DNA of 64,000 bases from Rugalucina vietnamica. Lineage: Eukaryota > Mollusca > Bivalvia > Lucinida > Lucinidae. The first letter of the stretch is position 1, and each line of letters begins with the position of its first letter. Below the pieces are notes generated by a model, which worked only from the letters and a program-made list of their open reading frames with translations, was not told the DNA's origin and did not search any database. The DNA lies in the NCBI GenBank assembly GCA_964017185.1, contig OZ024877.1:3326006-3390005 (forward strand), given 5' to 3'. Below are positions 11,606-59,541 of the stretch, piece after piece. Both the position numbers and the translations under genes were made by a program.

Positions 11606-12512
11606 AGATTGTGGGTTCACGCAAAGCGTATATATATGATCTAGGATTTTGGAGTCATTATAAGAAAATGTATAGCGCACCCCTCATGTGCCATATACAT
11701 GTAAAAATGGTGTCACAGACATGCTATCATAATACACAAAAACACTATTTTAAAATTTTGTCGCCACCCGGCAAGAGGTTTTGTAACCCGGAATTGACCT
11801 GCAGAGATTGTAGTGGGTGTGGCTTAACTCCTGGCACAGGAATTAAAAGCCAATGAGAATACTTGTAATATTTAATAACGGCATTGAGGTGGAGTCATGG
11901 ATTAAGTACGCTAAGCACAGGAAGAAAAGCCTACATCCCACTTTTGTTATTGTAATATTTGAGCCGCCCCATGGGAAAACCAACAATCTGCATAGACAAA
12001 AACAAATGCGCAGATCAGCTTCGCGGTAACCGCGGTGCTGATCAGCGCCTTTGTTTTCGCTACTCGGATAGTACAATTCTTCCTATACTTAACTCCAAAA
12101 TTTCAAGCATTTGGCTATCTTCTGAGCTTGTACAGGTCGGTTTGTGTCAGACCTGTTCGGAAACCACATTGTTGGTTTTCCCACGAGACGGCTCATTTAA
12201 TCTGCTGATTAGAGCTGTCACAATTTCCATTGGTAACTCTTCTCCCTGAAATAATCTTCAATCAACCATTAGACACTTGGCACAAGTGGCCGAAGATTTC
12301 CATAGAAAGTAAAGTGGAGGTAGAACTTGAGGTTACAGGAAGTGCACTTCTTGTGCACATTCTTTGAGAGACAAGTGCACTTTAATAAGAGCGACATCTG
12401 AACATGATGTGCACATTGATTTGCACTCCATGTGCACCTCGGTCTAAAATTGCACTGTTTTAGAGAGACATCTGAATATATACCAACTATAATCTGCAAA
12501 CGATCTTGAACT

Positions 12513-12933
12513 TCATTGACTAGTTAGAGATTCACCACGAGGACCGAAGAACTAACTAAATGTTATGAACCACTGCAGAAGCTGAGGGTGAGGTTAGGTA
12601 CCTGTAAAACCGGTTTAAACCCGCCAGTAACTTTGTGTTACTGATTGTTCCAAGCCGATACTTCTGTGGTGGTTCTTTTTGTTTTATGTCTTGGTGTTTA
12701 AATTTTTTGTGCTGTTGACGCCTTATGTATGTTTTCATATTTTTAGTTAAGGTAAGGTAACTGAGTGGCCACCTATTGGGAAAATAGCTGCTCATTCGGC
12801 TTGCGGTGTGTTTCATGGTATAAGTACCTGTTTGTTAGTTTGGTTTTTTCCCACCTCGGTTTTTGGAGTGGGAATCTTTTTCTGATTGCGCCTTTTCCTG
12901 ATCTTTGCCTACTTGTACCTTTTTCTTGAGTTA
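12513..12933 (+). mobile_element. PLE 3' UTR piece
   Basis: Runs from GACTAGTTAGAGATTCACC to the intact tip GCCTACTTGTACCTTTTT. It lies in a gene 1 intron, in the same orientation as the gene. Confidence 0.9.
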
Positions 12934-26164: not shown

Positions 26165-28710
26165 AGAAACCAGAGGACCAATGGTCCTGTAAATGCTCAC
26201 CTGAGATCTGCTGTATATACCAATAAACATGTTTGAATATTATAGAAAACAGTTCCAGTATAGGGGCAGATGAAGCCCTGGGACCATTTTTTTCAGGATA
26301 ATCAATATCCTGTCCATTTGCCAATATCCTACAAGTTTTTCCCTTCAAATGACATTTCAACAGATCAACCCATTCAAATACATAGGCAACCCATGTTGAC
26401 CTTGCCTTAAAATAGGTCAAGGTCATCCCAGGGTCATGATTTATATATACATTGTAGTACTTGAGTCATCGGTGATTCATACCAAGTTTCTTTGAAATCG
26501 GTAAACCAGTTCCGGAGAAAAAGATTTTTGTAGGGTTTTACCATATATGGGCATGACGGCCATCTTGGTCATGTGACCTGAATTATTTAAATATACATTG
26601 GTTCCCCTTTCCTATAGATGCTTCATATAAAATTCGGCTTTGATTGGCCCAGCAGTTTCAAAGACGATCTTTGAATATTATTGTAATGTACATGTATACC
26701 CACCCCAGGGTGGGGGCAGAACAACCCCTGAGATCCTTTTTTTCAGAATCACATATCTTCAGTCTATTTGCCCATTTCCTGCAAGTTTTTCCTCTCAAAT
26801 GACATTTTAACAATTTTCCCCATTCAAATGCATGGGAAACATATGTTGACCTTGCCGTAAAAAAGGTAAAGGTCATCCAAAGGTTATAATTTATAAACAC
26901 ATTGTAGTACTCTAGTCCCCAATGCTTCATGCCAAGTTTCGTTGAAATCTGTCCAGTGGTTCCGGAGAAAAATAATTTTAAAGGGTTTTTACCATGTATG
27001 GGCATGGCGGCCATCTTGATCATGTGACCTGGATTATTTATAAATATATTGATTGACCCTTCCCATAGATGCTTCCTATAAAATTTGGCTTTGATTGGCC
27101 AAGTGGTTTCAGAGAAGAAGATCTTTGAATATTATTGTAATATACATGTATATTGCCCCCGGGTGAGAGCAGACCAACCCCTGGTGTCATTTTTTTTCAG
27201 AATCACATATCTTCAGTCCATTTTCCCATTATCTGCAACTTTATCCTTTCAAATGACATTTTAACAATTTTCCCCATTCAAATGCATGGGCGACCTATGT
27301 TGACCTTGCCATAAAATAGGTCAAGGTCATCCAAAGGTAATAATTTATAAATACATTGTAGTACTTTAGTCCCAATGCTTCATGCCAAGTTTCCTTGAAA
27401 TCGGTCCAGTGGTTCCGGAGAAGAAAAGTACAAGTAGGCAAAGATCAGGAAAAGGCGCAATCAGAAAAGACTCCCACTCCAAAAACCAAGATGGGAAAAA
27501 AAACAACAATCAGGTACTTATACCATGAAAACATTTAGTAAGCCGAATGAGCAGCTATTTTCCCAATAGGTGGCCACTCAGTTACCTTAACTTAACTAAA
27601 AATATGCAAACATACATAAGGCGCCAACAGCACAAAAATATTTTAAACACCAAGACATAAAACAAAAAGAACCACCACAGAAGTATCGACTTGGAACGAT
27701 CAGTAACACAAAGTTACTGGCGGGTTTAAATCGATTTTACACGGCCGTAACCTCACCCTTAGCTTCTGCAGTGGTTCATAACATTTAGTTAGTTCTTCGG
27801 TCCTCGTGGTGAATCTCTAACTAGTAAATGAATCATCAAGAACAAACAAATAAATCATGATAAACATCCTGATGAATCAAAAACCAGGACTCACAGATTC
27901 AGTAAGCTGCCCGACGATGGAGATCCCTTGGCGCCAAATAACTTACTAACTCCGGAGCTAAAGAAAAACATCAGTTGGACCCCGGTGGGCCAAGCAACAG
28001 ACAAGAAGCTCCGGCCCCAACCAACTAAAATGAAATAGCTTTAAGTCGGGGCCATCATAGAGTCTGACGCCCGACCCACCGGCGTGCAATTAAAGAAGGC
28101 AGCATAGTTATCAACCGTGATTGGGTTAAAACCTTAGCATGCAGACTGTCGCATAACATTCAAGTTATAACCTATACGTCTGTAACGTGTTATGATTTTT
28201 CTAAACTGAAAAGAAAAATCATTACTTCCTATAAGTTTCTTAAATTTGTAAACCAAGTCACCATAAAATTCTGGTTCCGAAAGACCCTCACTTAAAAGCG
28301 TCTTTAACCCAACATTATATTTGGAAATCAATTCATAGTGTCTACGATAAAATTTAGAAAAGGTTTTTCGAAGTTTATGATACCGATAGCCCTGTTGGAG
28401 AAGTTTGGCCGTTAAAGATTTATTTCGAGCGTTGAAGTCTGTAACATGATTGCAGACTCTAGAATTTTGAAGTTTTTTACCATATATGGGCGTGGTGGCC
28501 ATCTTGGTCATGTGACCTGGTTTATTTATAAACACATTGGTCCCCCCTTCCCACAGATGCTTCATATAAAATTTGGCTTTGATCGGCCAAGCGGTTTCAG
28601 AGAAGAAGATCTTTGAAAATGGTGGAAGACGACGGACGACGGATGGACGCGGGATCATGGCCATCCTATTAGCTCACCTTGTGAGCCTAACGCCGCAGGT
28701 GAGCTAATTA
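26165..28710. repeat. GCTCACCT-ended element with ~450-bp internal repeats
   Basis: Starts AACCAGAGGACCAATGGTCC and ends with the hairpin TAGCTCACCTTGTGAGCC...GCAGGTGAGCTA. Inside are about three tandem units of roughly 450 bp, each with TTCCTGCAAGTTTTTCC-, GACCTTGCC..., AGGTCAAGGTCATC-, GGTTCCGGAGAA- and CATCTTGGTCATGTGACC-like phrases. A PLE copy interrupts the third unit. No protein is encoded; the frames are remnants. Confidence 0.8.
27426..28464 (-). mobile_element. PLE 3' UTR plus C-terminal RT
   Basis: Runs from the tip (AAAGTACAAGTAGGC) through the full 3' UTR and about 330 bp of C-terminal RT. The RT frame is open (for example KYNVGLKTLLSEGLSEPEFY). It is inserted in a repeat unit between CCGGAGAAG and AGAATTTTGAAG; a short AGAA-type target duplication is possible. 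Confidence 0.93.
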
Positions 28711-36227: not shown

Positions 36228-36500
36228 AGCGAAGTAGCTGAGTGGTTAGCACACTGGCTTCTTGTGCTCAAGGTCCCAGGTTCGATCCCCGCCGGCGGCA
36301 AGAAAATTTGTTGGTCCCAACACGCTTCCTTTAGTGTCACTTGCAGGAATGACATGATACAGTGCGCCGTCCTTCGGATCGGGACATTATCTGGAGGCCC
36401 CCTGTGCAGGGACAGTCATCCCCTGTACAGGTTAAAGATCCCTACACAGGTTCTATCCTCATGCATGTAGGCTCATCCTGTAAACACACTGGAGTGTACA
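36228..36500 (+). mobile_element. tRNA-derived SINE
   Basis: The head GAAGTAGCTGAGTGGTTAGC (A box) and GGTTCGATCCC (B box) is followed by a conserved body with GTGCAGGGACAGTCATCCC and GGTTAAAGATCC, a phrase common in invertebrate tRNA-SINE bodies. Confidence 0.85.
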
Positions 36501-36513
36501 ATGTACGACACTG

Positions 36514-36594
36514 GCTATCCGCACGACGGTCGTGCCGATAACGCTGCTTATCGGCACGACCGTCGTGCGGATAAGCGGCGTTATCCGCACGACA
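36514..36594. repeat. Dense palindrome cluster, MITE end
   Basis: TATCCGCACGACGGTCGTGC and its reverse complement alternate. Each unit is itself an imperfect dyad, so the 80-bp block can fold several ways. It matches the ends of the element at 41507-41942. Confidence 0.85.
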
Positions 36595-37135
36595 GGGAAA
36601 TCGATATCCAAATGTTAAGAATGTTTAGAAATCGGTACATTTTAAGTTGATAAATATATTACACTGGCTTCAAAACTGAAACAGAGTATTCACATGCAGG
36701 AATTTTTACTTTCTAATTAACAAAAAGGTACAAGCAGGCAAAGATCAGGAAAAGGCGCAATCAGAAAAAGATTCCCACTCCAAAAACCGAGGTGGGAAAA
36801 AACCAAACTAACAATCAGGTACTTATACCATGAAACAATCGTAAGTCGAATGGGCAGCTATTTTCCCAACAGGTGGCCACTCAGTTACCTTAACTTAACT
36901 AAAAATATGAAAACATACATAAGGCGCCAACAGCACAAAAAATTTTTAAACACCAAGACATAAAACAAAAAGAACCACCACAGAAGTATCGACTTGGAAC
37001 GATCAGTAACACAAAGTTACTGGCGGGCTTAAACCGGTTTTACATGGCCATAACCTCACCCTCAGCTTCTGCAGTGGTTCATAACATTTAGTTAGTTATT
37101 CGGTCCTCGTGGTGAATCTCTAACTAGTCAATGAA

Positions 37136-38066
37136 AAGGTACAAGTAGGCAAAGATCAGGAAAAGGCGCAATCAGAAAAAAATTCCCACTCCAAAAACCG
37201 AGGTGGGAAAAAACCAAACTAACAATCAGGTACTTATACCATGAAACATATCGTAAGCCGAATGAGCAGCTATTTTCCCAATAGGTGGCCACTCAGTTAC
37301 CTTAACTTAACTAAAAATATGAAAACATACATAAGGCGCCAACAGCACAAAAAATTTTAAACACCAAGACATAAAACAAAAAGAACCACTACAGAAGTAT
37401 CGACTTGGAACGATCAGTAACACAAAGTTACTGGCGGGCTTAAACCGGTTTTACAGGTACCTAACCTCACCCTCAGCTTCTGCAGTGGTTCACAACATTT
37501 AGTTAGTTCTTCGGTCCTCGTGGTGAATCTCTAACTAGCCAATGAATCATCAAGAACAAACAAACAAACCATGACAAACATCCCGACGAATCAAAAACCA
37601 GGACCCACAGACTGAGCAAGCCGCCCGACGACGGAGACCCCCGGGCGCCGAACAACCCACCAACTCCGGAGCAAAAGAAAAACACCAGCCGGACCCCGGT
37701 GGGCCAAGCAACAGACAAGAAGCCCCGGCCCCAACCAACCAAAATGAATAGCCCCAAGTCGGGGCCACCATAGAGTCCGACGCCCGACCCACCGGCGCGC
37801 AACCAAAGAAGGCAGCACAGCTATCAACCGCGACTGGGCCAAAAACCAAGCATGCAGACCGCCGCATAACACCCAAGCCACAACCCACACGCCCGCAACG
37901 CGCTATGATTCTTCCGAACCGAAAAGAAAAACCATTTATTCCCCCAAGCCTCCCCAATCTGCAAACCAAGTCACCATAAAATTCAGGTTCCGAAAGGCCC
38001 CCACCCAAAAGCGTCTTTAACCCAACACCACATTTGGAAATCAATTCATAGTGCCCACGACAAAAT
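37136..38066 (-). mobile_element. Nested, A-to-G hypermutated PLE copy
   Basis: Co-oriented 3' piece with an intact tip, 3' UTR and about 250 bp of C-terminal RT. From 37539 to 38061 about 70 positions differ from the sister copies by T-to-C on the + strand (A-to-G in the element sense strand), against two or three other changes. The distal 3' UTR (37136-37490) is nearly unaffected. The RT stop TAA has become TGG, and Lys, Asn, Ile, Tyr and Thr codons are turned to Arg/Gly, Asp/Ser/Gly, Val, Cys and Ala. This opens a 164-codon readthrough frame (37550-38044) that is an editing artefact, not a gene. Confidence 0.93.
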
Positions 38067-38272
38067 CATCAAGAACAAACAAATAAATCATGATAAACAT
38101 CCTGATGAATCAAAAACCAGGACTCACAGACTGAGTAAGCTGCCCGACGATGGAGATCCCTGGGCGCCGAATAACCTACTAACTCCGGAGCAAAAGAAAA
38201 ACACCAGTTGGACCCCGGTGGGCCAAGCAACAGACAAGAAGCTCCGGCCCCAACCAACTAAAATGAATAGCT

Positions 38273-40195
38273 TTATGTCGGGGCCATCATAGAGTCTGAC
38301 GCCCGACCCACAGGCGTGCAATTAAAGAAGGCAGCATAGTTATCAACCATGACTGGGTTAAAAACTAAGCATGCAGACTGTCGCAAAACATTCAAGTTAT
38401 AACCTATACGTTTGTAACGTGTTATGATTTTTCTGAACTGAAAAGAAAAATCATTAATTCCTTTAAGTTTCTTAAATTTGTAAACCAAGTCACCATAAAA
38501 TTCAGGTTCCGAAAGGCCCTCACTTAAAAGCGTCTTTAACCCAACATTATATTTGGAAATCAATTCATAGTGTCTACGATAAAATTTAGAAAAGGTTTTT
38601 CGAAGTTTATGATACCGATAGCCCTGTTGGAGAAGTTTTGCCGTTAAACATTTATTTCGAGCGTTGAAGTCTGTAACATGATTGCAGACTCTAGCAAACC
38701 TAATAAGTTGCGAAATGTATACACCATAAGAAGCACGACGAGGAACGTCACCATCCAAAAAAGGAAAATTTACTATATCAAAATCAAAGTCATCGCGCTT
38801 ATCATAAATTTTAGAAGAAACAAATCCATTTGCAACAGAAAGATGTAGATCTAAAAAGGGGGCTTCAGTATCCGAGATATTGGCTTTGTTCAACTGAAGT
38901 TCAGGTGGATAAATTTGATTGACCATACCTTCAAAATAAGGGTTGTCAATGTTCAATAGGTCATCGAGGTACCTAGATGTGGAATTAAAAGCCTCGATAA
39001 CATCAGCTTGATTATCATGGTTAAGAGAATCCATGAAATCTCTTTCGTAGCAGTATAAAAATAAATCAGCTACGAGAGGTGCGCAATTTGTACCCATCGG
39101 AATTCCAACAATTTGTCTGTATAACTTGGTCCCAAATCTAATATAAATATTATCAAGGAGATAGGATAAGGCGTCGCATACATTCTGACATGACCAAAGT
39201 GTATACCGACTTTGGTCAGAGGAAGTGAAAAAAGCCTTTCTGTCATTACATGCCAAATAAAGTGAACCATAGTTTTTTAATGCCCTTTTGAAGGTCCACT
39301 CTATCAAATCCAGAAGTTTTTCTTTAATTAGATTATGTGGTAATGTTGTATACAGAGTAGAAAAATCATATGTGGACAAGCTTGTCGCACGGAACCCTCT
39401 ACACTTCAATTTACTGAGCACCTCACCAGAATTTTTAATTGACCAAAACCAATTTTTATTTGAAGTTTCATACACTGTCTCACAGTATCTTATAACATGA
39501 GATTTGATAGCAGTAAGACAGGAAGTTAATAATTTAGAAAGTTCAGTGGTAGTACAAGAGCTAGAATTTGCAATAAATCTAGCTTTGTATGGTCTTTTGT
39601 GAAGCTTAGGTAACCAATACATCGTAGGAAGTTTGTCTTGGCCTTCATTGACACAAACAGAAAACTTAACAGGTAAATCGTTTAAGTGGGCATTAACTAC
39701 AGACACCTCATCAGTATCTGTCTCCAGATAAGCCCTGGTACCATCAAGCTCCTGTTTTAAGGTATTAACGTAGTGAAGCCTACAAACGACAACAACATTG
39801 TTTGCGGCTTTATCTGCCGGAACCAAGACATACTTTCTATGAAATTCTTGGATACCCTGCTTCAAATGCCTAAATGACGATTTGGGTTTAGGAGGTAAAA
39901 GATTAGTATTTTGTGAATAAAACTTAATACGTTTATCCACGATAGTGAAGATACTTCTTTTCCATTCTTTAAGAGCATTATCCTCAACACCCTCTCGTTT
40001 ACACCATCGATTACCGAAATCATTTAATGCAGATGAAATCTCCTCTCTACATTTGTCGAAATTAATGTAGGAAGGGAATCTATATTTCGGACCTTTAGAA
40101 ACAATTTTGCGAATTCTAGAATCCGAAATTATTTTTAAATTTCCAGTAACAATATGTCCAGCGGGTTGATAAACATATTTTGAATCTTTACAATC
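38273..40195 (-). CDS. PLE reverse transcriptase
   Basis: Reverse transcriptase of the Penelope-like element. Counting from the GTG codon at 39940, V-P-A-D-K-A lies at 40-45 (the PLE 'DKG'-type block with Ala for Gly), YWLPKLHKRPYKARF at 108-122, motif A YDFSTLYTTLP at 191-201 (Asp192), motif B GIPMGTNCAP at 279-288, and motif C YLDDLLNID at 324-332 (Asp326, Asp327). All three catalytic Asp are present. The frame ends TAA at 38273-38275. No ATG opens this part: 85 in-frame codons precede the GTG back to the TGA at 40196-40198, beyond which the nuclease part continues in the same frame. The protein is therefore the C-terminal part of one nuclease-RT polyprotein interrupted by one nonsense mutation. 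Confidence 0.92.
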   Translation of the reverse strand, partial: DCKDSKYVYQPAGHIVTGNLKIISDSRIRKIVSKGPKYRFPSYINFDKCREEISSALNDFGNRWCKREGVEDNALKEWKRSIFTIVDKRIKFYSQNTNLLPPKPKSSFRHLKQGIQEFHRKYVLVPADKAANNVVVVCRLHYVNTLKQELDGTRAYLETDTDEVSVVNAHLNDLPVKFSVCVNEGQDKLPTMYWLPKLHKRPYKARFIANSSSCTTTELSKLLTSCLTAIKSHVIRYCETVYETSNKNWFWSIKNSGEVLSKLKCRGFRATSLSTYDFSTLYTTLPHNLIKEKLLDLIEWTFKRALKNYGSLYLACNDRKAFFTSSDQSRYTLWSCQNVCDALSYLLDNIYIRFGTKLYRQIVGIPMGTNCAPLVADLFLYCYERDFMDSLNHDNQADVIEAFNSTSRYLDDLLNIDNPYFEGMVNQIYPPELQLNKANISDTEAPFLDLHLSVANGFVSSKIYDKRDDFDFDIVNFPFLDGDVPRRASYGVYISQLIRFARVCNHVTDFNARNKCLTAKLLQQGYRYHKLRKTFSKFYRRHYELISKYNVGLKTLLSEGLSEPEFYGDLVYKFKKLKGINDFSFQFRKIITRYKRIGYNLNVLRQSACLVFNPVMVDNYAAFFNCTPVGRASDSMMAPT

Positions 40196-41065
40196 TCAAG
40201 ACTTAGGAGTATTAGCATGGATATCAAGATCAGAAACAAGTTTATTGAAATTAAAAATTGTATTTCTGATTGGTTTGTTATATTTGAAACAAATAATAGG
40301 AGGTTCTGAATTTTGGAAGTAGGTTGGTATAGACTGTATCACTGATTTATCCTGGAATATGCTTGGTAAATCAATAAAGTCAATTCCTTTATTGATGAAA
40401 GGAATTTTGATAAAACTTCTAATGTGATTGGATTCGGAATCGATAAATGGACGAAGAGCATGCTGAGTATAACATCTTGTTAACAGTGCAGCGTCATACA
40501 TTTGATGATTTCTATCGTAAAATCTATTAGCCTCTGTGTCCAAGGAACGTAATGCAGCAATAGGTAGAGAACTAAGATACGACAGCATTGGATGTCGACC
40601 GTGAATCCTTAGTTTAACAGCTAAATCATTAAGAGAAATGTTCAATTTCAATGCAGCACACCGTTTACGTTTGTCATTACCCCTTTTCCGTATACCATGA
40701 GATCTAGATTTACGTTTACGAGAGTCCGAAAGTGTAAGTACATCAAAATCGGGCATTTTGGAAATATTGCCTTCATGGTAAATGTTGTCGTTAAATCCCA
40801 GTGGAAAGGGTGTTTGCAGTAATTTTATCCATTTAAGTTCAGTTTCAAATCGTTTAATGTTTTTGAATCTAACTGAAGAATTTTCATCATATGAGATTTT
40901 CTCCACTGGTTGAACTTTAACATCATTGGGAGAATGACCAGTGCGCTTAAAATGCTGGTACAGAAAGGTATCATTAGTTTTGGGTTTTCTGATTCTACGA
41001 TAGTGCTCACCAAATCGTTTTTGCAAAGTTCGACAAGTTTGTCCAACATATTGCATCCTACAATT
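40196..41065 (-). CDS. PLE GIY-YIG endonuclease, N-terminal part
   Basis: 286 codons from ATG at 41056. QYVGQT at residues 2-7 is the Y-I-G half of the motif, followed by R-T-L-x-K-R-F-G-E-H (9-18), a His/Cys-type 'YQHFKRTGHS' (33-42), and FETELKWIKL with F-P-L-G-F-N (70-89), the usual Glu and 'WI..L.T..P.GLN' block of PLE nucleases. A basic segment (KRKSRSHGIRKRG, 114-126) may aid nuclear entry or nucleic-acid binding. The G-I-Y half and the residues before QYVG are missing or unrecognisable; nine open codons precede the Met. The nuclease makes the nick that primes reverse transcription. Its N-terminal position is the distinguishing mark of Naiad/Chlamys PLEs. Confidence 0.88.
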   Translation of the reverse strand, partial: NCRMQYVGQTCRTLQKRFGEHYRRIRKPKTNDTFLYQHFKRTGHSPNDVKVQPVEKISYDENSSVRFKNIKRFETELKWIKLLQTPFPLGFNDNIYHEGNISKMPDFDVLTLSDSRKRKSRSHGIRKRGNDKRKRCAALKLNISLNDLAVKLRIHGRHPMLSYLSSLPIAALRSLDTEANRFYDRNHQMYDAALLTRCYTQHALRPFIDSESNHIRSFIKIPFINKGIDFIDLPSIFQDKSVIQSIPTYFQNSEPPIICFKYNKPIRNTIFNFNKLVSDLDIHANTPKS

Positions 41066-42671: not shown

Positions 42672-44405
42672 CAAGACATAAAACAATAGGAACCACAACA
42701 GAAGTATCGCCTTGGAATGATCAGTAATGTAAAATTACTGGCGGGCTTAAACCGGTTTTACAGTATCCTAACCTCACCCTCAGCTTCTGCAGTGGTTCAT
42801 AACACTTAGTTGTTCGGTCCTCGTAGTGAATCTCTAACTAGTCAATGAATCATCATGGACAAACAAATGAATCATGATAAATTCCACGATGAATCAAAAA
42901 CGAGGACTCACAGAATGAGTAAGCTGCCCGACGATGGAGATCCCTGGGCGCCCAATAACTTACTAACTCCCGAGCAAAAGAAAACCACCAGTTGAACCCT
43001 GGTGGGCCAAGCAACAGACAAGAAGCTCCGGCCCCATCCAACTAAAATGAAAAGGTACAAGTAGGCAAAGATCGGGAAAGGCGCAATCAGAAAGAGATTC
43101 CCACTCCTAAAACCGAGGTGGGAAAAACAAACTAACAATCAGGCACTTATACCATGAAACATATCGTAAGCCGAATTAGCAGCTATTTTCCCAATAGGTG
43201 GCCACTCAGTTACCTTAACTTAATTAAAAATATGAAAACATACATAAGGCGCCAACAGCACAATTTTTTTTAAACAACAAGACATAAGACAAAAAGAACC
43301 ACCACAGAAGTATCGCCTTGGAACGATCAGTAACACAAAGTTACTGGCAGGCTTAAACCGGTTTTACAGGATCCTAACCTCACCCTCAGCATCTGCAGTG
43401 GTTCATAACATTTTGTAAGTTCTTCGGTCCTCGTGGTGAATCTCTAACTAGTCAATGAATCATCAAGAACAAACAAATAAATCATGATAAACATCCTGAT
43501 GAATCGAAAACAAGGACTCTTGAAAAGCTTTAAAGGAAAAGCTTTATGTCGGGGCCATCATAGAGTCTGACGCCCGACCCACCAGCGTGCAATTAAAGAA
43601 GGCAGCATAGTTATCAATCGTGATTGGGTTAAAAACTAAACATGCAGCCTGTCGCATAACATTTAAGTTATATCCTATACGTCTGTAACGCGCAGTGCTT
43701 TCTCTGAATTGAAGAGAAAAATCATTCCTTCCAAAAAGTTTCTTAAATTTGTAAACCAAGTCACCATAAAATTCTGGTTCCGAAAGGCCCTCACGTAAGA
43801 GGGTCTTTAGCCAAATATAAAATTTATAAATCAGTTCATCGTGTCTGCGATAAAATTTAGAAAAGGTTTTTCGAAGTTTATGATACCTATAGCCCTGCTG
43901 AAGAAGTTTGGCTGTTAAACATTTATTTCGTACATTGAAGTCCGCAACATGATTGCAGACTCTAGCAAACCTAATTAGTTGTGAAATGTATACGCCATAA
44001 GAAGCACGGCGAGGAACGTCACCATCCCAAAACGGAAAGTTTACCATATCAAAATCAAAGTCTCGTTAATCATAAATTTTAGAAGAAACGAATCCATTTG
44101 CAATAGAAAGATGTAAGTCTAAAAATGGGGCTTCGGTACCTGTGCTGTTTGCTTTATTCAACTGTAGTTCAGGGGGATAAATTGTTTTGACCATACCTTC
44201 AAAATAAGGATTGTCAATGTTCAAAAGGTCATCGAGGTACTTAGAAGTCGAATTAAAGGCCTCGATAACATTAGCTTGATTGTCATGGTTAAGAGAATCC
44301 ATGAAGTATCTTTCGTAGCAGTATAAAAATAGATCAGCTACGAGAGGGGCGCAATTGGTAGCCATCGGGATTCCAACTATTTGTCTGTATAACTTGGTCC
44401 AAAAC
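42672..44405 (-). mobile_element. PLE copy with broken RT and a nested PLE
   Basis: Outer copy: 3' UTR 42672-43048 (own tip missing), resuming at about 43537 with the RT C-terminus and running to 44405 near motif B. The RT is frameshifted around 44048-44065. Within it, 43049-43536 is a younger co-oriented PLE 3' piece inserted after CTAAAATGA. A short unaligned stretch (about 43520-43536) lies at its 5' junction. Confidence 0.9.
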
Positions 44406-46045: not shown

Positions 46046-47680
46046 TAAAAAGGTACAAGTAGGCAAAGATCAGGAAAAGGCGCAATCAGAAAGAGATTCC
46101 CACTTCAAAAACCGAGGTGGGAAAAAACCAAACTAACAATCAGGCAATTATACCATGAAACATATCGTAAGCCGAATGAGCAGCTATTTTCCCAATAGGT
46201 GGCCACTCAGTTACCTTAACTTAATTAAAAATATGAAAACATACATAAGGCGCCAACAGCACAAAAAAAACTAAACACCAAGACATAAAACAAAAAGAAC
46301 CACCACAAAAGTATCGGCTTGGAACGATCAGTAACACAAAGTTACTGGCGGGCTTAAACCGGTTTTACAGGATCCTAACCTCACCCTCAGCTTCTGCAGT
46401 GGTTCATAACATTTAGTAAGTTCTTCAGTCCTCGTGGTGAATCTCTAACTAGTCATTGAATCATCAAGAACAAACAAATAAATCATGATAGATATCCTGA
46501 TGAATCAAAAACAAGGACTCACAGATTGAGTAAGCTGCCCGACGATGGAGATCCCTGGGCGCCGAATAACCTACTAACTCCGGAGCAAAAGAAAAACACC
46601 AGTTGGACCCCGGTGGGACAAGCAACAGACAAGAAGCTCCGGCCCCAACCAACTAAAATGAATAGCTTTAAGTCGGGGCCATCATAGAGTCTGACGCCCG
46701 ACCCACCGGCGTGCAATTAAAGAAGGCAGCATAGTTATCAACCATGATTGGGTTAAAAACTAAGCATGCAGACTGTCGCATAATATTCAAGTTATAACCT
46801 ATAGTTCTGTAACGTGTTATGATTTTTCTGAACTGAAAAGAAAAATCATTAATTCCTACAAGTTTCTTAAATTTGTAAACTAAGTCACCATAAAATTCAG
46901 GTTCCGAAAGGCCCTCACTTAAAAGCGTCTTTAATCCAACATTATATTTGGAAATCAATTCATAGTGTCTACGATAATTTAGAAAAGGTTTTTCGAAGTT
47001 TCTGATACCGATAGCCCTGCTGGAGAAGTTTTGCCGTTAAACATTTATTTCGAGCGTTGAAGTCTGTAACATGATTGCAGACTCTAGCAAACCTAATAAG
47101 TTGCGAAATGTAAACACCATAAGAAGCACGACGAGGAACGTCACCATCCAAAAAAGGAAAATTTACAATATCAAAATCAAAGTCATCGCGCTTATCATAA
47201 ATTTTAGAAGAAACTAATCCATTTGCAACAGAAAGATGTAGATCTAAAAAGGGGGCTTCAGTATCTGAGATACTGGCTTTGTTCAACTGAAGTTCAGGTG
47301 GATAAATTTGATTGACCATACCTTCAAAATAAGGGTTGCCAATGTTCAAAAGGTCATCGAGGTACCTAGATATGGAATTAAAAGCCTCGATAACATCAGC
47401 TTGATTATCATGGTTAAGAGAATCCATGAAATCTCTTTCGTAGCAGTATAAAAATAAATCAGCTATGAGAGGTGCGCAATTTGTACCCATCGGAATTCCA
47501 ACAGTTTTTCTGTATAACTTGGTCCCAAATCTAATATAAATATTATCAAGGAGATAGGACAAGGCGTCGCACACATTCTGACATGACCAAAGTGTATACC
47601 GATTTGGTCAGAGGAAGTGAAAAAAGCCTTTCTGTCACTACATGCCAAATAAAGTGAACCATAGTTTTTAATGCTTTTAA
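46046..47680 (-). mobile_element. PLE copy: 3' UTR and two-thirds of RT, frameshifted
   Basis: Intact 3' UTR, then RT codons back to the block before motif B. A 2-nt deletion near 46967 splits the frame into 46668-46958 and 46969-47574. Motifs B (GIPMGTNCAP) and C (YLDD) are retained. Its 5' end abuts a + strand PLE piece. Confidence 0.93.
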
Positions 47681-50591: not shown

Positions 50592-52229
50592 CTGATAAAC
50601 AAACAAGAATCAAAATAATTATCGAATTGAATTACCCAATTCAATCACCAGACAGCTTATTGTTTCTCTGAATCCTCTTTTCTGATTCACCATGGTGTGT
50701 ATTATATTTTTCGTTTGTCCTTGATGATTCATAGAAATCCTACTCTGTCTTCAGGAGAAATGTTTTATACACAGAGGAAAAAGTTTAGTTAGTAGCTTTG
50801 ACCAGCCCGATTACTATAATGTCCAGCCGCTTGCCTTAGATGTTCCTGTTGATTAAATTCGCAAAGTCAGTCTCTTTCTAATTCTGGAAAGGAAGACCAC
50901 CAGTTGTCAGTTTCGACAGAATTATTGGTCTTTTTCGTAAAACATCATTTTTGTAATTTCCGGATAAATGATCAAATTGGCGCTTTGATTAATAGCGCTT
51001 TCTGAAAGTGAAAGAGGTGGTTGCCAATGACAAAAATCCAAAAAACATATTTACAAAATTTAGCCACAGTCTTGAGAAAAAAAAAACAGTCAAATATTTT
51101 TAGATTACCTCCCTTTCATTTAAAACAAGAACGAAAACTTATGTATGCACTGTTACAAAACAACATGCGACATTTCGATCGTTTTGTGGGAAATTTTAGA
51201 TTTTTTTACAGCTTTATGACTGGTAATTTAATCCCAAACTATGGAGGGGTTTTAAAGCTTTAGCGATTTAAACTGTCCACATGGGATTTTACATGCATTT
51301 TTACTGACTAAACTTTTGCCGGTGAGCATACTATCACTTGTTTTACACATATGTATACAAAGGTACAAGTAGGCAAAGATCAGGAAAAGGCGCAATCAGA
51401 AAAAGATTCCCACTCCAAAAACCGAGGCGGGAAAAAACCAAACCAACAATCAGGTACTTATACCATGAAACATATCGTAAGCCGAATGAGCAGCTATTTT
51501 CCCAATAGGTGGCCACTCAGTTACCTTAACTTAACTAAAAATATGAAAACACACACAAGGCGCCAACAGCACAAAAGAAATTTTCAAACACCAAGACATA
51601 AAACGAAAAGAACCACCACAGAAGTATCGACTTGGAACGATCAGTAACACAAAGTTACTGGCGGGCTTAAACCGGTTTTACATGGCCATAACCTCACCCT
51701 CAGCTTCTGCAGTGGTTCATAACATTTAGATAGTTATTCGGTCCTCGTGGTGAATCTCTAACTAGTCAATGAATCATCAAGAACAAACAAATAAATCATG
51801 ATAAACATCCTGATGAATCAAAAACCAGGACTCACAGACTGAGTAAGCTGCCCGACGATGGAGATCCCTGGGCGCCGAATAACCTACTAACTCCGGAGCA
51901 AAAGAAAAACACCAGTTGGACCCCGGTGGGCCAAGCAACAGACAAGAAGCTCCGGCCCCAACCAACTAAAATGAATAGCTTTATGTCGGGGCCATCATAG
52001 AGTCTGACGCCCGACCCACCGGCGTGCAATTAAAGAAGGCAGCATAGTTATCAACCATGATTGGGTTAAAAACTAAGCATGCAGACTGTCGCATAACATT
52101 CAAGTTATAACCTATACGTCTGTAACGTGTTATGATTTTTCTGAACTGAAAAGAAAAATCATTAATTCCTTATTGTTTATGAGTACTGATACACTCCTCG
52201 TGGTTCTATATTGTGCTTGATCAACCTAC
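50592..52229 (-). other. Intron of gene 2
   Basis: 50592-51357 has nothing recognised. 51358-52170 is a PLE copy. Confidence 0.6.
51358..52170 (-). mobile_element. PLE 3' UTR plus C-terminal RT
   Basis: Nearly identical to the unedited copy at 38067 onward, so it is young. It includes about 180 bp of RT C-terminus with the normal stop. It is in the same orientation as gene 2 and serves as a good unedited reference for the 37136-38066 copy. Confidence 0.95.
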
Positions 52230-52397
52230 CGCTTTGTGATTGGGTAACACACCAATTATCGCCACATTCAAAACTGTAACAACACACAAGACCCGGGTCA
52301 CAATCATCGCTGCTGGCACAGGCACCGTCAGGATCAGCAGCACAGGCGTCCTCGGCATACAAGGCTGGGGCATATGGACAGCCATCAGCATCTGCAC
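52230..52397 (-). CDS. Gene 2 exon: WAP module 2
   Basis: Acceptor CTTATTATATTCAG, donor GTAGGT, 168 nt, phase 1-1. The product starts GADADGCPYAP. Cysteines are spaced C-x(12)-C-x(7)-C-x(5)-C-x(5)-C-C-x(4)-C-x(4)-C, with ASSDDC and LVCC. This is the eight-Cys WAP four-disulfide core, found in secreted protease inhibitors and antimicrobial proteins. An upstream open stretch to about 52550 stays in frame, so an extended exon is possible, but the clear acceptor favours this start. Confidence 0.88.
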
Positions 52398-58842: not shown

Positions 58843-59541
58843 TTACTGATCGTTCCAAGTCGATTCATTTACTAGTTAGAGATTCACCACGAGGACCGAA
58901 GAACTAACTAAATGTTATGAACCACTGCAGAAGCTGAGGGTGAGGTTACGGCCGTGTAAAATCGATTTAAACCCGCCAGTAACTTTGTGTTACTGATCGT
59001 TCCAAGTCGATACTTCTGTGGTGGTTCTTTTTGTTTTATGTCTTGGTGTTTAAAATATTTTTGTGCTGTTGGCGCGTTATGTGTGTTTGCAAATTTTTAG
59101 TTAAGTTAAGGTAACTGAGTGGCCACCTATTGGAAAATAGCTGCTCATTCGGCTTACGAAATGTTTTCATGGTATAAGTACCTGATTGTTAGTTTGTTTT
59201 TTCCCACCTTGGTTTTTGGAGTGGGAGTCTTTTTCTGATTGCGCATTTTCCTGATCTTTGCCTGCTTGTACTTTTTTCTGTGGTGGTTCTTTTTGTTTTA
59301 TGTCTTGGTGTTTAAAAATTGTTTGTGCTGTTGGCGCCTTATGTATGTTTTCATATTTTTAGTTAAGTTAAGGTAACTGAGTGGCCACCTATTGGATAAA
59401 TAGCTGCTCATTCGGCTTACGATATGTTTCATGGTATAAGTACCTGATTGTTAGTTTGGTTTTTTCCCACCTCGGTTTTTGGAGTGGGAATCTTTTTCTG
59501 GTTGCGCCTTTTCCTGATCTTTGCCTACTTGTACCTTTTTA
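58843..59541 (+). mobile_element. PLE 3' UTR piece with nested PLE piece
   Basis: Outer piece: 58843-58865 (GTTACTGATCGTTCCAAGTC) continues at about 59276 (CTGTGGTGGTTCTTTTTG) to the tip at 59541. The nested piece, about 58866-59275, starts in ACTAGTTAGAGATTCACC and has its own tip TGCTTGTACTTTTTT. Both are + oriented. Confidence 0.88.

What the first reader, a model, noticed from the sequence alone, without database searches (positions are those of the whole stretch)
37136..38066. A-to-G hypermutated retroelement copy: an ADAR-type editing scar fixed in DNA
Compared by eye with unedited copies (38067 onward, 27838, 46440, 51775), about 70 of some 73 differences between 37539 and 38061 are T-to-C on +, i.e. 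A-to-G in the sense strand of this - strand element. Sense 5' neighbours of changed A are U 25, A 19, C 14, G 12. Set against unchanged A in the same stretch, the changed fractions are roughly U 0.74, A 0.63, C 0.58, G 0.38. U>A>C>G is the known ADAR preference. APOBEC or methyl-C decay would give C-to-T or G-to-A instead. The RT stop became TGG and Lys/Asn/Ile/Tyr/Thr codons were recoded, making a false 164-codon frame. The distal 3' UTR is spared, so only part of the RNA was double-stranded. The implied route is PLE RNA edited as dsRNA, then reverse transcribed and inserted.
Basis: partly seen in the sequence, partly recalled or inferred. Interest (0 to 1): 0.92.

Follow-up and report, generated by a model that had tools for sequence, protein, structure and literature searches.

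The report
RNA-editing scar in a retroelement copy
One copy of a Penelope-like jumping element carries dozens of A-to-G changes of the kind made by the RNA-editing enzyme ADAR, and related copies elsewhere carry their own separate sets, so edited RNA seems to have been copied back into DNA again and again.

Summary
Against four unedited copies in the window, 70 of 74 differences in 37539-38061 are T>C on + (A>G in the sense strand), 70 of 122 sense A. Changed A follow the ADAR order of 5' neighbours, U>A>C>G (one-sided permutation p=0.004; plain chi-square p=0.056). The distal unit is untouched. A protein search with the unedited reverse transcriptase listed its best 120 relatives; 13 differ from some relative mainly (at least 70%) by A>G, and none passes the same limits for T>C, C>T or any transversion. 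Pooled with two searches that favour edited copies, 49 of 334 pass looser limits, against 0 for each of the ten non-mirror types. Edited copies share A>G hotspots but at most three other changes per pair, so they look like separate events, not a GC-rich subfamily. Fifteen of them repeat the 5' preference (p=5e-5). ADAR-type editing of sense RNA before reverse transcription is the best explanation (0.9). Not shown: host identity, its ADAR, the partner strand. The 3'-neighbour preference did not replicate. Penelope RNA is a known massive editing target in lizard; no DNA scars were found described.

The parts
37539..38061 (-). A-to-G edited tract (sense strand = -): C-terminal RT codons, stop codon, SECIS-like element and proximal 3' UTR; dense run 37565-38061
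   Evidence: 70 of 74 differences T>C on +; largest one-type cluster in the window; context
37136..37538 (-). unedited distal 3' unit of the same copy
   Evidence: 37136-37548: 8 differences, 2 T>C of 89 T, at 37493 and 37539
36725..37135 (-). second, head-to-tail copy of the distal 411-base unit, unedited
   Evidence: 96% match to 37136-37546; 7 differences from consensus, 2 of them T>C
38064..38585 (-). unedited counterpart of the edited tract, end of the next PLE copy (T2)
   Evidence: 522-base direct match to 37545-38066 with 75 differences, 69 of them T>C
38064..38066 (.). junction of edited copy and T2, 3-base overlap AAT
   Evidence: overlap of the two matched stretches 37545-38066 and 38064-38585
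38273..39940 (-). RT open frame of T2 (555 aa, ends in TAA)
   Evidence: ORF list; YLDD and GTNCAP motifs by eye (recalled as RT motifs); 2086 matches
40196..41056 (-). upstream open frame with weak GIY-YIG match at its N-terminus, same frame as RT, separated from it by one TGA (40196-40198)
   Evidence: PF01541 E=0.0072, 17 bits against cut-off 22.6
37550..38044 (-). false 164-codon frame made by editing away stop codons
   Evidence: ORF; translation; sense stops in the three frames of the 528-column stretch fall from 18/4/11 to 5/2/5
38231..38298 (-). SECIS_1 element of T2, overlapping the RT stop; the edited counterpart (37712-37779 by the 519-base offset) is not matched
   Evidence: 37.4 bits, cut-off 35; no hit at the counterpart; core AUGA to AUGG and AUAAAG to UUGGGG read (the A>U there is not an edit)
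46440..46980 (-). unedited copy used for the consensus
27825..28360 (-). unedited copy used for the consensus
51763..52260 (-). unedited copy used for the consensus (matches to about 52169)

Best explanation
Sense RNA of a Penelope-like element (PLE) became double-stranded, most likely by pairing with antisense PLE RNA. An ADAR-type enzyme turned about half of the adenosines of the paired stretch into inosine. The element's reverse transcriptase read inosine as guanosine and the cDNA was inserted into the genome. Shown: the A>G-only, sense-only spectrum; the 5'-neighbour preference; the recurrence in other PLE copies with different patterns. Inferred: the duplex, the enzyme, the order of editing before reverse transcription, and a template switch at 38064-38066 that joined an edited and an unedited RNA.
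For: One-type spectrum, 70 of 74 differences, 70 of 122 sense A. 5' order U>A>C>G here (one-sided p=0.0043) and, inferred from residue changes, in 15 hand-chosen edited relatives: T .61, A .55, C .45, G .34 of 1311 sites, chi-square p=2.8e-11, within-copy permutation p=5e-5 (floor) and site-level p=1e-4. Recurrence: 13 of the best 120 relatives from the unedited-query search, 49 of 334 pooled, 0 for each of the ten non-mirror types. Independence: in two subfamilies (11 edited copies, 25 pairs) pairs share 6-33 identical A>G changes but 0-3 others; in the window's subfamily 89 of 120 pairs share no other change, 24 share 1, 3 share 2, 4 share 3. Patchy tracts: P0065 is edited only in reference nt 757-1195. 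Mollusc ADAR1 sites have T, A or C upstream and no strong downstream preference (PMC6651903, passages); G is depleted upstream across the Metazoa studied (PMC5625713, passages). The Penelope element of lizard is massively edited at RNA level, over 40 thousand sites (PMC5625713, passage). Nearly 50% of A changed in avian retrovirus cases ascribed to ADAR (PMC12925331, passages).
Against: The plain 5'-neighbour chi-square in this copy is p=0.056. The 3'-G preference here (21 of 24, p=0.0006) is not seen in the 15 others (p=0.69). Edited A are not more paired in the cis fold than unedited ones: 43 of 69 against 36 of 49, p=0.24; mean pairing probability .60 against .69, p=0.10, so no cis duplex is shown. 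Some pairs share more A>G sites than random choice predicts, read here as hotspots. Host genome, ADAR gene and RNA reads could not be examined. DNA-level evidence exists for one copy only; the rest is inferred from protein sequences.
Confidence: 0.9

Rival explanations
1. A low-fidelity polymerase wrote the patch: a Pol iota-like enzyme putting G opposite T during repair, or the element's RT putting C opposite template A.
For: The edited tract nearly coincides with a 522-base tandem duplication, as a patch of repair synthesis might. Pol iota's preference for G opposite T is recalled, not from a call.
Against: Neighbour order matches ADAR in this and 15 other copies. It recurs in at least three PLE subfamilies with sense A>G only. 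Other error types are nearly absent. P0121 appears edited beyond the unit boundary (read by eye).
Confidence: 0.06
2. A GC-rich PLE subfamily, or GC-biased gene conversion, gave the differences.
For: Some edited pairs share more A>G sites than random choice predicts, for example 24 against 7.0 for P0110 and P0086.
Against: That pair shares no other change; over 25 and 120 pairs the maximum is 3. Patterns and tract limits differ. A>G on + occurs once among 192 A, whereas gene conversion would act on both strands.
Confidence: 0.02
3. Sequencing or assembly artefact.
For: Only one DNA copy is in hand; a paper describes a G-to-A cluster artefact in Sanger traces (PMC2873906, passages).
Against: Candidates for editing lie on contigs whose longest sizes run from 7.4 and 8.3 kb (P0305, P0289) to several Mb (P0143, 6.8 Mb), with the element's sense polarity.
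Confidence: 0.01
4. An adenosine deaminase acted on DNA of an RNA:DNA hybrid during reverse transcription.
For: ADAR editing of DNA in hybrids is reported in vitro (PMC12925331, passages).
Against: Editing first-strand cDNA would give T>C in sense, for which none of 334 proteins passes the limits.
Confidence: 0.01

Closest known systems
A-to-G hyperedited avian retroviruses (Rous-associated virus, avian leukosis virus; Felder 1994, Hajjar and Linial 1995, as cited in PMC12925331, passages)
   Same: A>G clusters with nearly 50% of A changed in reverse-transcribed sequences, ascribed to a dsRNA adenosine deaminase
   Different: Those are retroviruses; here the copies are genomic PLE insertions and recur in several subfamilies
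ADAR hyper-editing of transcribed repeats, including the lizard Penelope element (PMC5625713, passages)
   Same: Clustered A-to-I in repeats, even in a Penelope element; upstream G depleted
   Different: There the change is read in RNA against DNA; here it is in the DNA itself
APOBEC-type DNA editing of retrotransposons (PMC2873906, passages)
   Same: One-type clusters in retroelement copies; that survey also lists A-to-G/T-to-C clusters as the smaller class (49 against 114 in mouse IAP regions, 129 against 247 in human)
   Different: The excess there is G-to-A, and the A-to-G class is not ascribed to editing in the passages seen
Mollusc ADAR1 editing of malacoherpesvirus RNA (PMC6651903, passages)
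   Same: Upstream T, A or C, weak downstream preference
   Different: Viral RNA, not a genomic retroelement
Penelope-like elements with N-terminal GIY-YIG (Naiad type, recalled; paper not held)
   Same: GIY-YIG-like stretch upstream of RT in one frame; tandem partial copies; SECIS (recalled for that group)
   Different: Editing scars not known to me for that group

Membership tests
ADAR hyper-editing footprint | clustered A>G with other types near background | tested here: met
   70 of 74
ADAR hyper-editing footprint | 5' neighbour U>A>C>G, G depleted | tested here: met
   ordered one-sided p=0.0043 here, four-class chi-square p=0.056; 15 other copies p=5e-5
ADAR hyper-editing footprint | 3' neighbour preference | tested here: inconclusive
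   G favoured here, none in 15 others; invertebrate ADARs differ
ADAR hyper-editing footprint | about half of the adenosines changed in a tract | tested here: met
   70 of 122; 670 of 1311 in 15 others within their tracts
ADAR hyper-editing footprint | double-stranded RNA substrate | tested here: inconclusive
   cis fold shows no excess pairing of edited A; trans duplex not observable
ADAR hyper-editing footprint | host encodes ADAR | not testable with these tools
APOBEC or methyl-C decay | C>T or G>A changes | tested here: not met
   0 C>T and 0 G>A among 74
Penelope-like element | reverse transcriptase | tested here: inconclusive
   YLDD, GTNCAP and YDFSTLYT motifs by eye (recalled); no Pfam match; best PDB match to the profile E=0.29, not RT; structure model too poor, pLDDT 41
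Penelope-like element | GIY-YIG endonuclease | tested here: inconclusive
   PF01541 E=0.0072, below cut-off
Penelope-like element | tandem or partial-tandem copies with pseudo-LTRs | tested here: met
   head-to-tail units 36725-38585 and 42672-43519; arrangement as in PMC11167929 (outline and part 1 of 2 of its main text) and PMC3846280 (passages)

The most novel reading that the evidence does not exclude
ADAR editing is a recurrent restriction of PLE retrotransposition in this animal lineage that leaves a permanent DNA record: a sizeable share of new PLE copies come from hyperedited sense RNA. The scar's polarity shows that the sense RNA is the template, a point left open in PLE biology. Because A>G removes stop codons, edited copies also seed the genome with longer open frames and broken SECIS elements.
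Probability: 0.6. Interest if true: 0.92.

Novelty: new variant of a known kind. Interest (0 to 1): 0.88.

Why it matters
It would give a genomic fossil record of RNA editing: dsRNA formation, ADAR preference and template strand could be read from DNA alone, without RNA samples. It makes a named open question testable: whether PLEs reverse-transcribe sense or antisense RNA (PMC3846280, passages, leaves both possible). It also suggests ADAR as a source of mutated, stop-poor retroelement copies.

Tried and rejected
APOBEC or methyl-C decay: no C>T or G>A among the 74 differences. GC-rich subfamily: rejected by non-shared background changes. Cis hairpin as the sole duplex: the 522-base unedited RNA folds better than shuffles (z -4.55), but edited A are not enriched in pairs. 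Hammerhead ribozyme at the 411-base boundary: no Rfam hit; the loose motif has 13 hits in the window, none within 36500-38600. Twister-like matches are weak (E 0.84 and 1.3). DNA of other copies: no relatives in genome contigs and viral contigs by protein patterns or by a 27-base pattern, none in plasmids. Detection bias: in a simulation of 200 tracts per type, A>G and T>C leave the frame equally open (555 aa) with 66 and 56 residue changes, so T>C copies should have been seen if common; G>A and C>T shorten it (393 and 331 aa), so their absence among proteins is weaker evidence. The structure model was too poor to use; no fold search was made.

Limits of the counts. Searches used edited queries; the unbiased figure is 13 of 120, and those 120 are the top of 2086 matches. 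In one search the mirror type G>A is met by 280 proteins; 17 of the 49 A>G proteins are also in it, 32 are not. The 15 copies were chosen by hand from the table (other A>G-rich rows of the same subfamily, such as P0163, P0214, P0159, were left out), and only sites between first and last inferred edit were counted. Six neighbour positions were tested and four; besides those reported, -2 gave p=0.021. Against a consensus, the unedited copy 51360 also has 5 T>C among 11 differences in the distal unit.

Full report
What is there. Window 36725-38585 holds, on the - strand, head-to-tail pieces of a Penelope-like element (PLE): two copies of a 411-base distal 3' unit (36725-37135, 37136-37546), then 37547-38066 with the proximal 3' UTR, RT stop and last RT codons, then the same 522 bases again at 38064-38585 as the end of a longer copy (T2) whose RT frame is 38273-39940. 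T2's upstream frame 40196-41056 has a weak GIY-YIG match at its start and is in frame with RT across one TGA.

The observation. Against the majority of four unedited copies, 70 of 74 differences are T>C on +, that is A>G in the sense strand, out of 122 possible sites; the reverse type occurs once in 192. Non-A>G differences are 4 of 528 against the majority, and 9, 12 and 13-14 against the three long single copies, while those three differ from each other at 22-27 sites, so apart from editing the copy looks no older than its relatives. The dense run is 37565-38061, ending three bases from the junction. T2 shows no comparable excess: C in T2 for T in the other copy is 7 of 22 and 4 of 23 differences. 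At the other end there is one lone change at 37539; over 37136-37548 there are 8 differences, 2 of them T>C (37493 and 37539) among 89 T.

Context in this copy. Fraction of sense A changed by 5' neighbour: T .74, A .59, C .54, G .39, chi-square p=0.056; ordered trend one-sided p=0.0043, G depletion p=0.022. By 3' neighbour: G .88, C .67, A .47, T .44, chi-square p=0.0027, G excess p=0.0006. Among triplets with more than three sites TAG (6 of 6) and GAA (1 of 7) are the extremes.

Recurrence. I searched the protein collection with the unedited RT, with the edited false frame and with one edited relative, P0143. Several hits to the edited frame read through the lost stop and carry N to S/G/D, K to R/G/E, Y to C, I to V, T to A, M to V. 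With T2's codons as reference, 17 of 189 proteins with at least 8 differences have 60% or more explained by A>G, and 0 for each of the 11 other types; 51 of the 240 had fewer differences. In the unedited-query list alone, compared all against all, 13 of 120 have at least 15 and at least 70% A>G against some relative over 150 or more residues; the only other type met is the mirror, G>A (76), from reading the same pairs backwards. That the A state is ancestral follows because the many unedited copies agree with each other while each edited copy has its own pattern. Examples: P0065, 40 of 40 differences from P0083; P0120, 63 forward, 1 reverse, 5 other against P0048. Pooled, 49 of 334 meet looser limits (10 changes, 70%, 90 residues), 0 for each of the ten other types, 280 for the mirror, 17 in both lists. 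They fall in at least three subfamilies (nearest unedited relatives P0083/P0002, P0079/P0104, P0048/P0026).

Independence. In two subfamilies, 11 edited copies (25 pairs) share 6-33 identical A>G changes, in some pairs more than random choice predicts, but only 0-3 identical other changes; unedited controls share 0-1 A>G with edited ones. In the window's own subfamily, with P0002 as reference, 120 pairs of 16 edited copies share 0 other changes in 89 pairs, 1 in 24, 2 in 3 and 3 in 4; the window copy shares 1-22 A>G and 0-1 other changes with each of the rest. Shared hotspots with separate backgrounds fit repeated editing by an enzyme with site preference. Tracts start and stop in different places.

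Context again. In 15 hand-chosen edited relatives of the window's subfamily, states of 1311 A could be inferred from residues, 670 edited: 5' T .61, A .55, C .45, G .34 (p=2.8e-11); 3' neighbour no effect, p=0.69. Within-copy permutation p=5e-5, site-level p=1e-4; G is the lowest class in 11 of 15 copies. This is the pattern described for mollusc ADAR1 (PMC6651903, passages). The strong 3'-G effect of the window copy stands alone; a downstream G is described for mammals and reptiles, A for invertebrates (PMC5625713, passages), and I do not rest the case on it.

Mechanism. Editing of a sense:antisense duplex followed by reverse transcription of the sense strand accounts for all of this. RNA of the lizard Penelope element is massively edited (PMC5625713, passage). 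Antisense PLE small RNA and possible bidirectional promoters are described for rotifer PLEs (PMC3846280, passages). The same paper proposes an antisense template as one possibility; edited antisense templates would leave T>C in sense, and no protein passed the limits for that, although a simulation shows such copies would be as easy to see. The tract's near-coincidence with the 522-base duplication suggests that the RT moved between an unedited and an edited RNA, with AAT at the junction; this is inference.

Consequences. Editing removed sense stops (18/4/11 to 5/2/5 in the three frames), which explains the false 164-codon frame, and changed the core of the SECIS element that four other copies keep.

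Host. Not identified. Two named hits with 78-82% identity lie in assemblies labelled Candidatus Thiodiazotropha, symbionts of lucinid clams (recalled), so an animal, perhaps bivalve, host is likely. The host's own genome could not be searched in 12 attempts.

Literature. Of the ten paper searches, seven bore on ADAR and retroelements; I saw their listings (searches list 20 of 26, 12 of 40 and 6 of 7 papers). No listed title or abstract start describes A-to-G scars of PLEs or recurrent ADAR scars in genomic retroelements. Passages of PMC2873906 report more G-to-A than A-to-G clusters in mouse IAP regions (114 against 49) and in human sequences (247 against 129). Retroviral cases are known; [quoted passage not shown] Papers outside the library were not seen.

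Noticed in passing
38231-38298, 46626-46693, 27998-28066, 51939-52006 (- strand): Four SECIS_1 elements above the gathering score in the 3' end of PLE copies, and a single in-frame TGA (40196-40198) between the GIY-YIG-like and RT frames: the element may encode a selenoprotein. In T2 the SECIS overlaps the RT stop codon.
   Followed up: partly
36725-37135, 12512-12921, 58862-59274, 37546, 38064: Position about 411 of the distal unit recurs as a breakpoint: three solo units end there and T2's match begins there. Cause unknown.
   Followed up: partly
36519-36576: Near-perfect inverted repeat of about 23 bases per arm (weak MIR4380 match, E 0.016, far below its cut-off).
   Followed up: no
36971-37035 and 37383-37446 (- strand): Weak twister-P1 ribozyme-like matches (E 0.84 and 1.3) in both copies of the distal unit.
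   Followed up: no
protein P0001: A 732-aa relative in which a stretch of the RT C-terminal half occurs twice within one open frame, suggesting an in-frame tandem PLE junction (read by eye).
   Followed up: no
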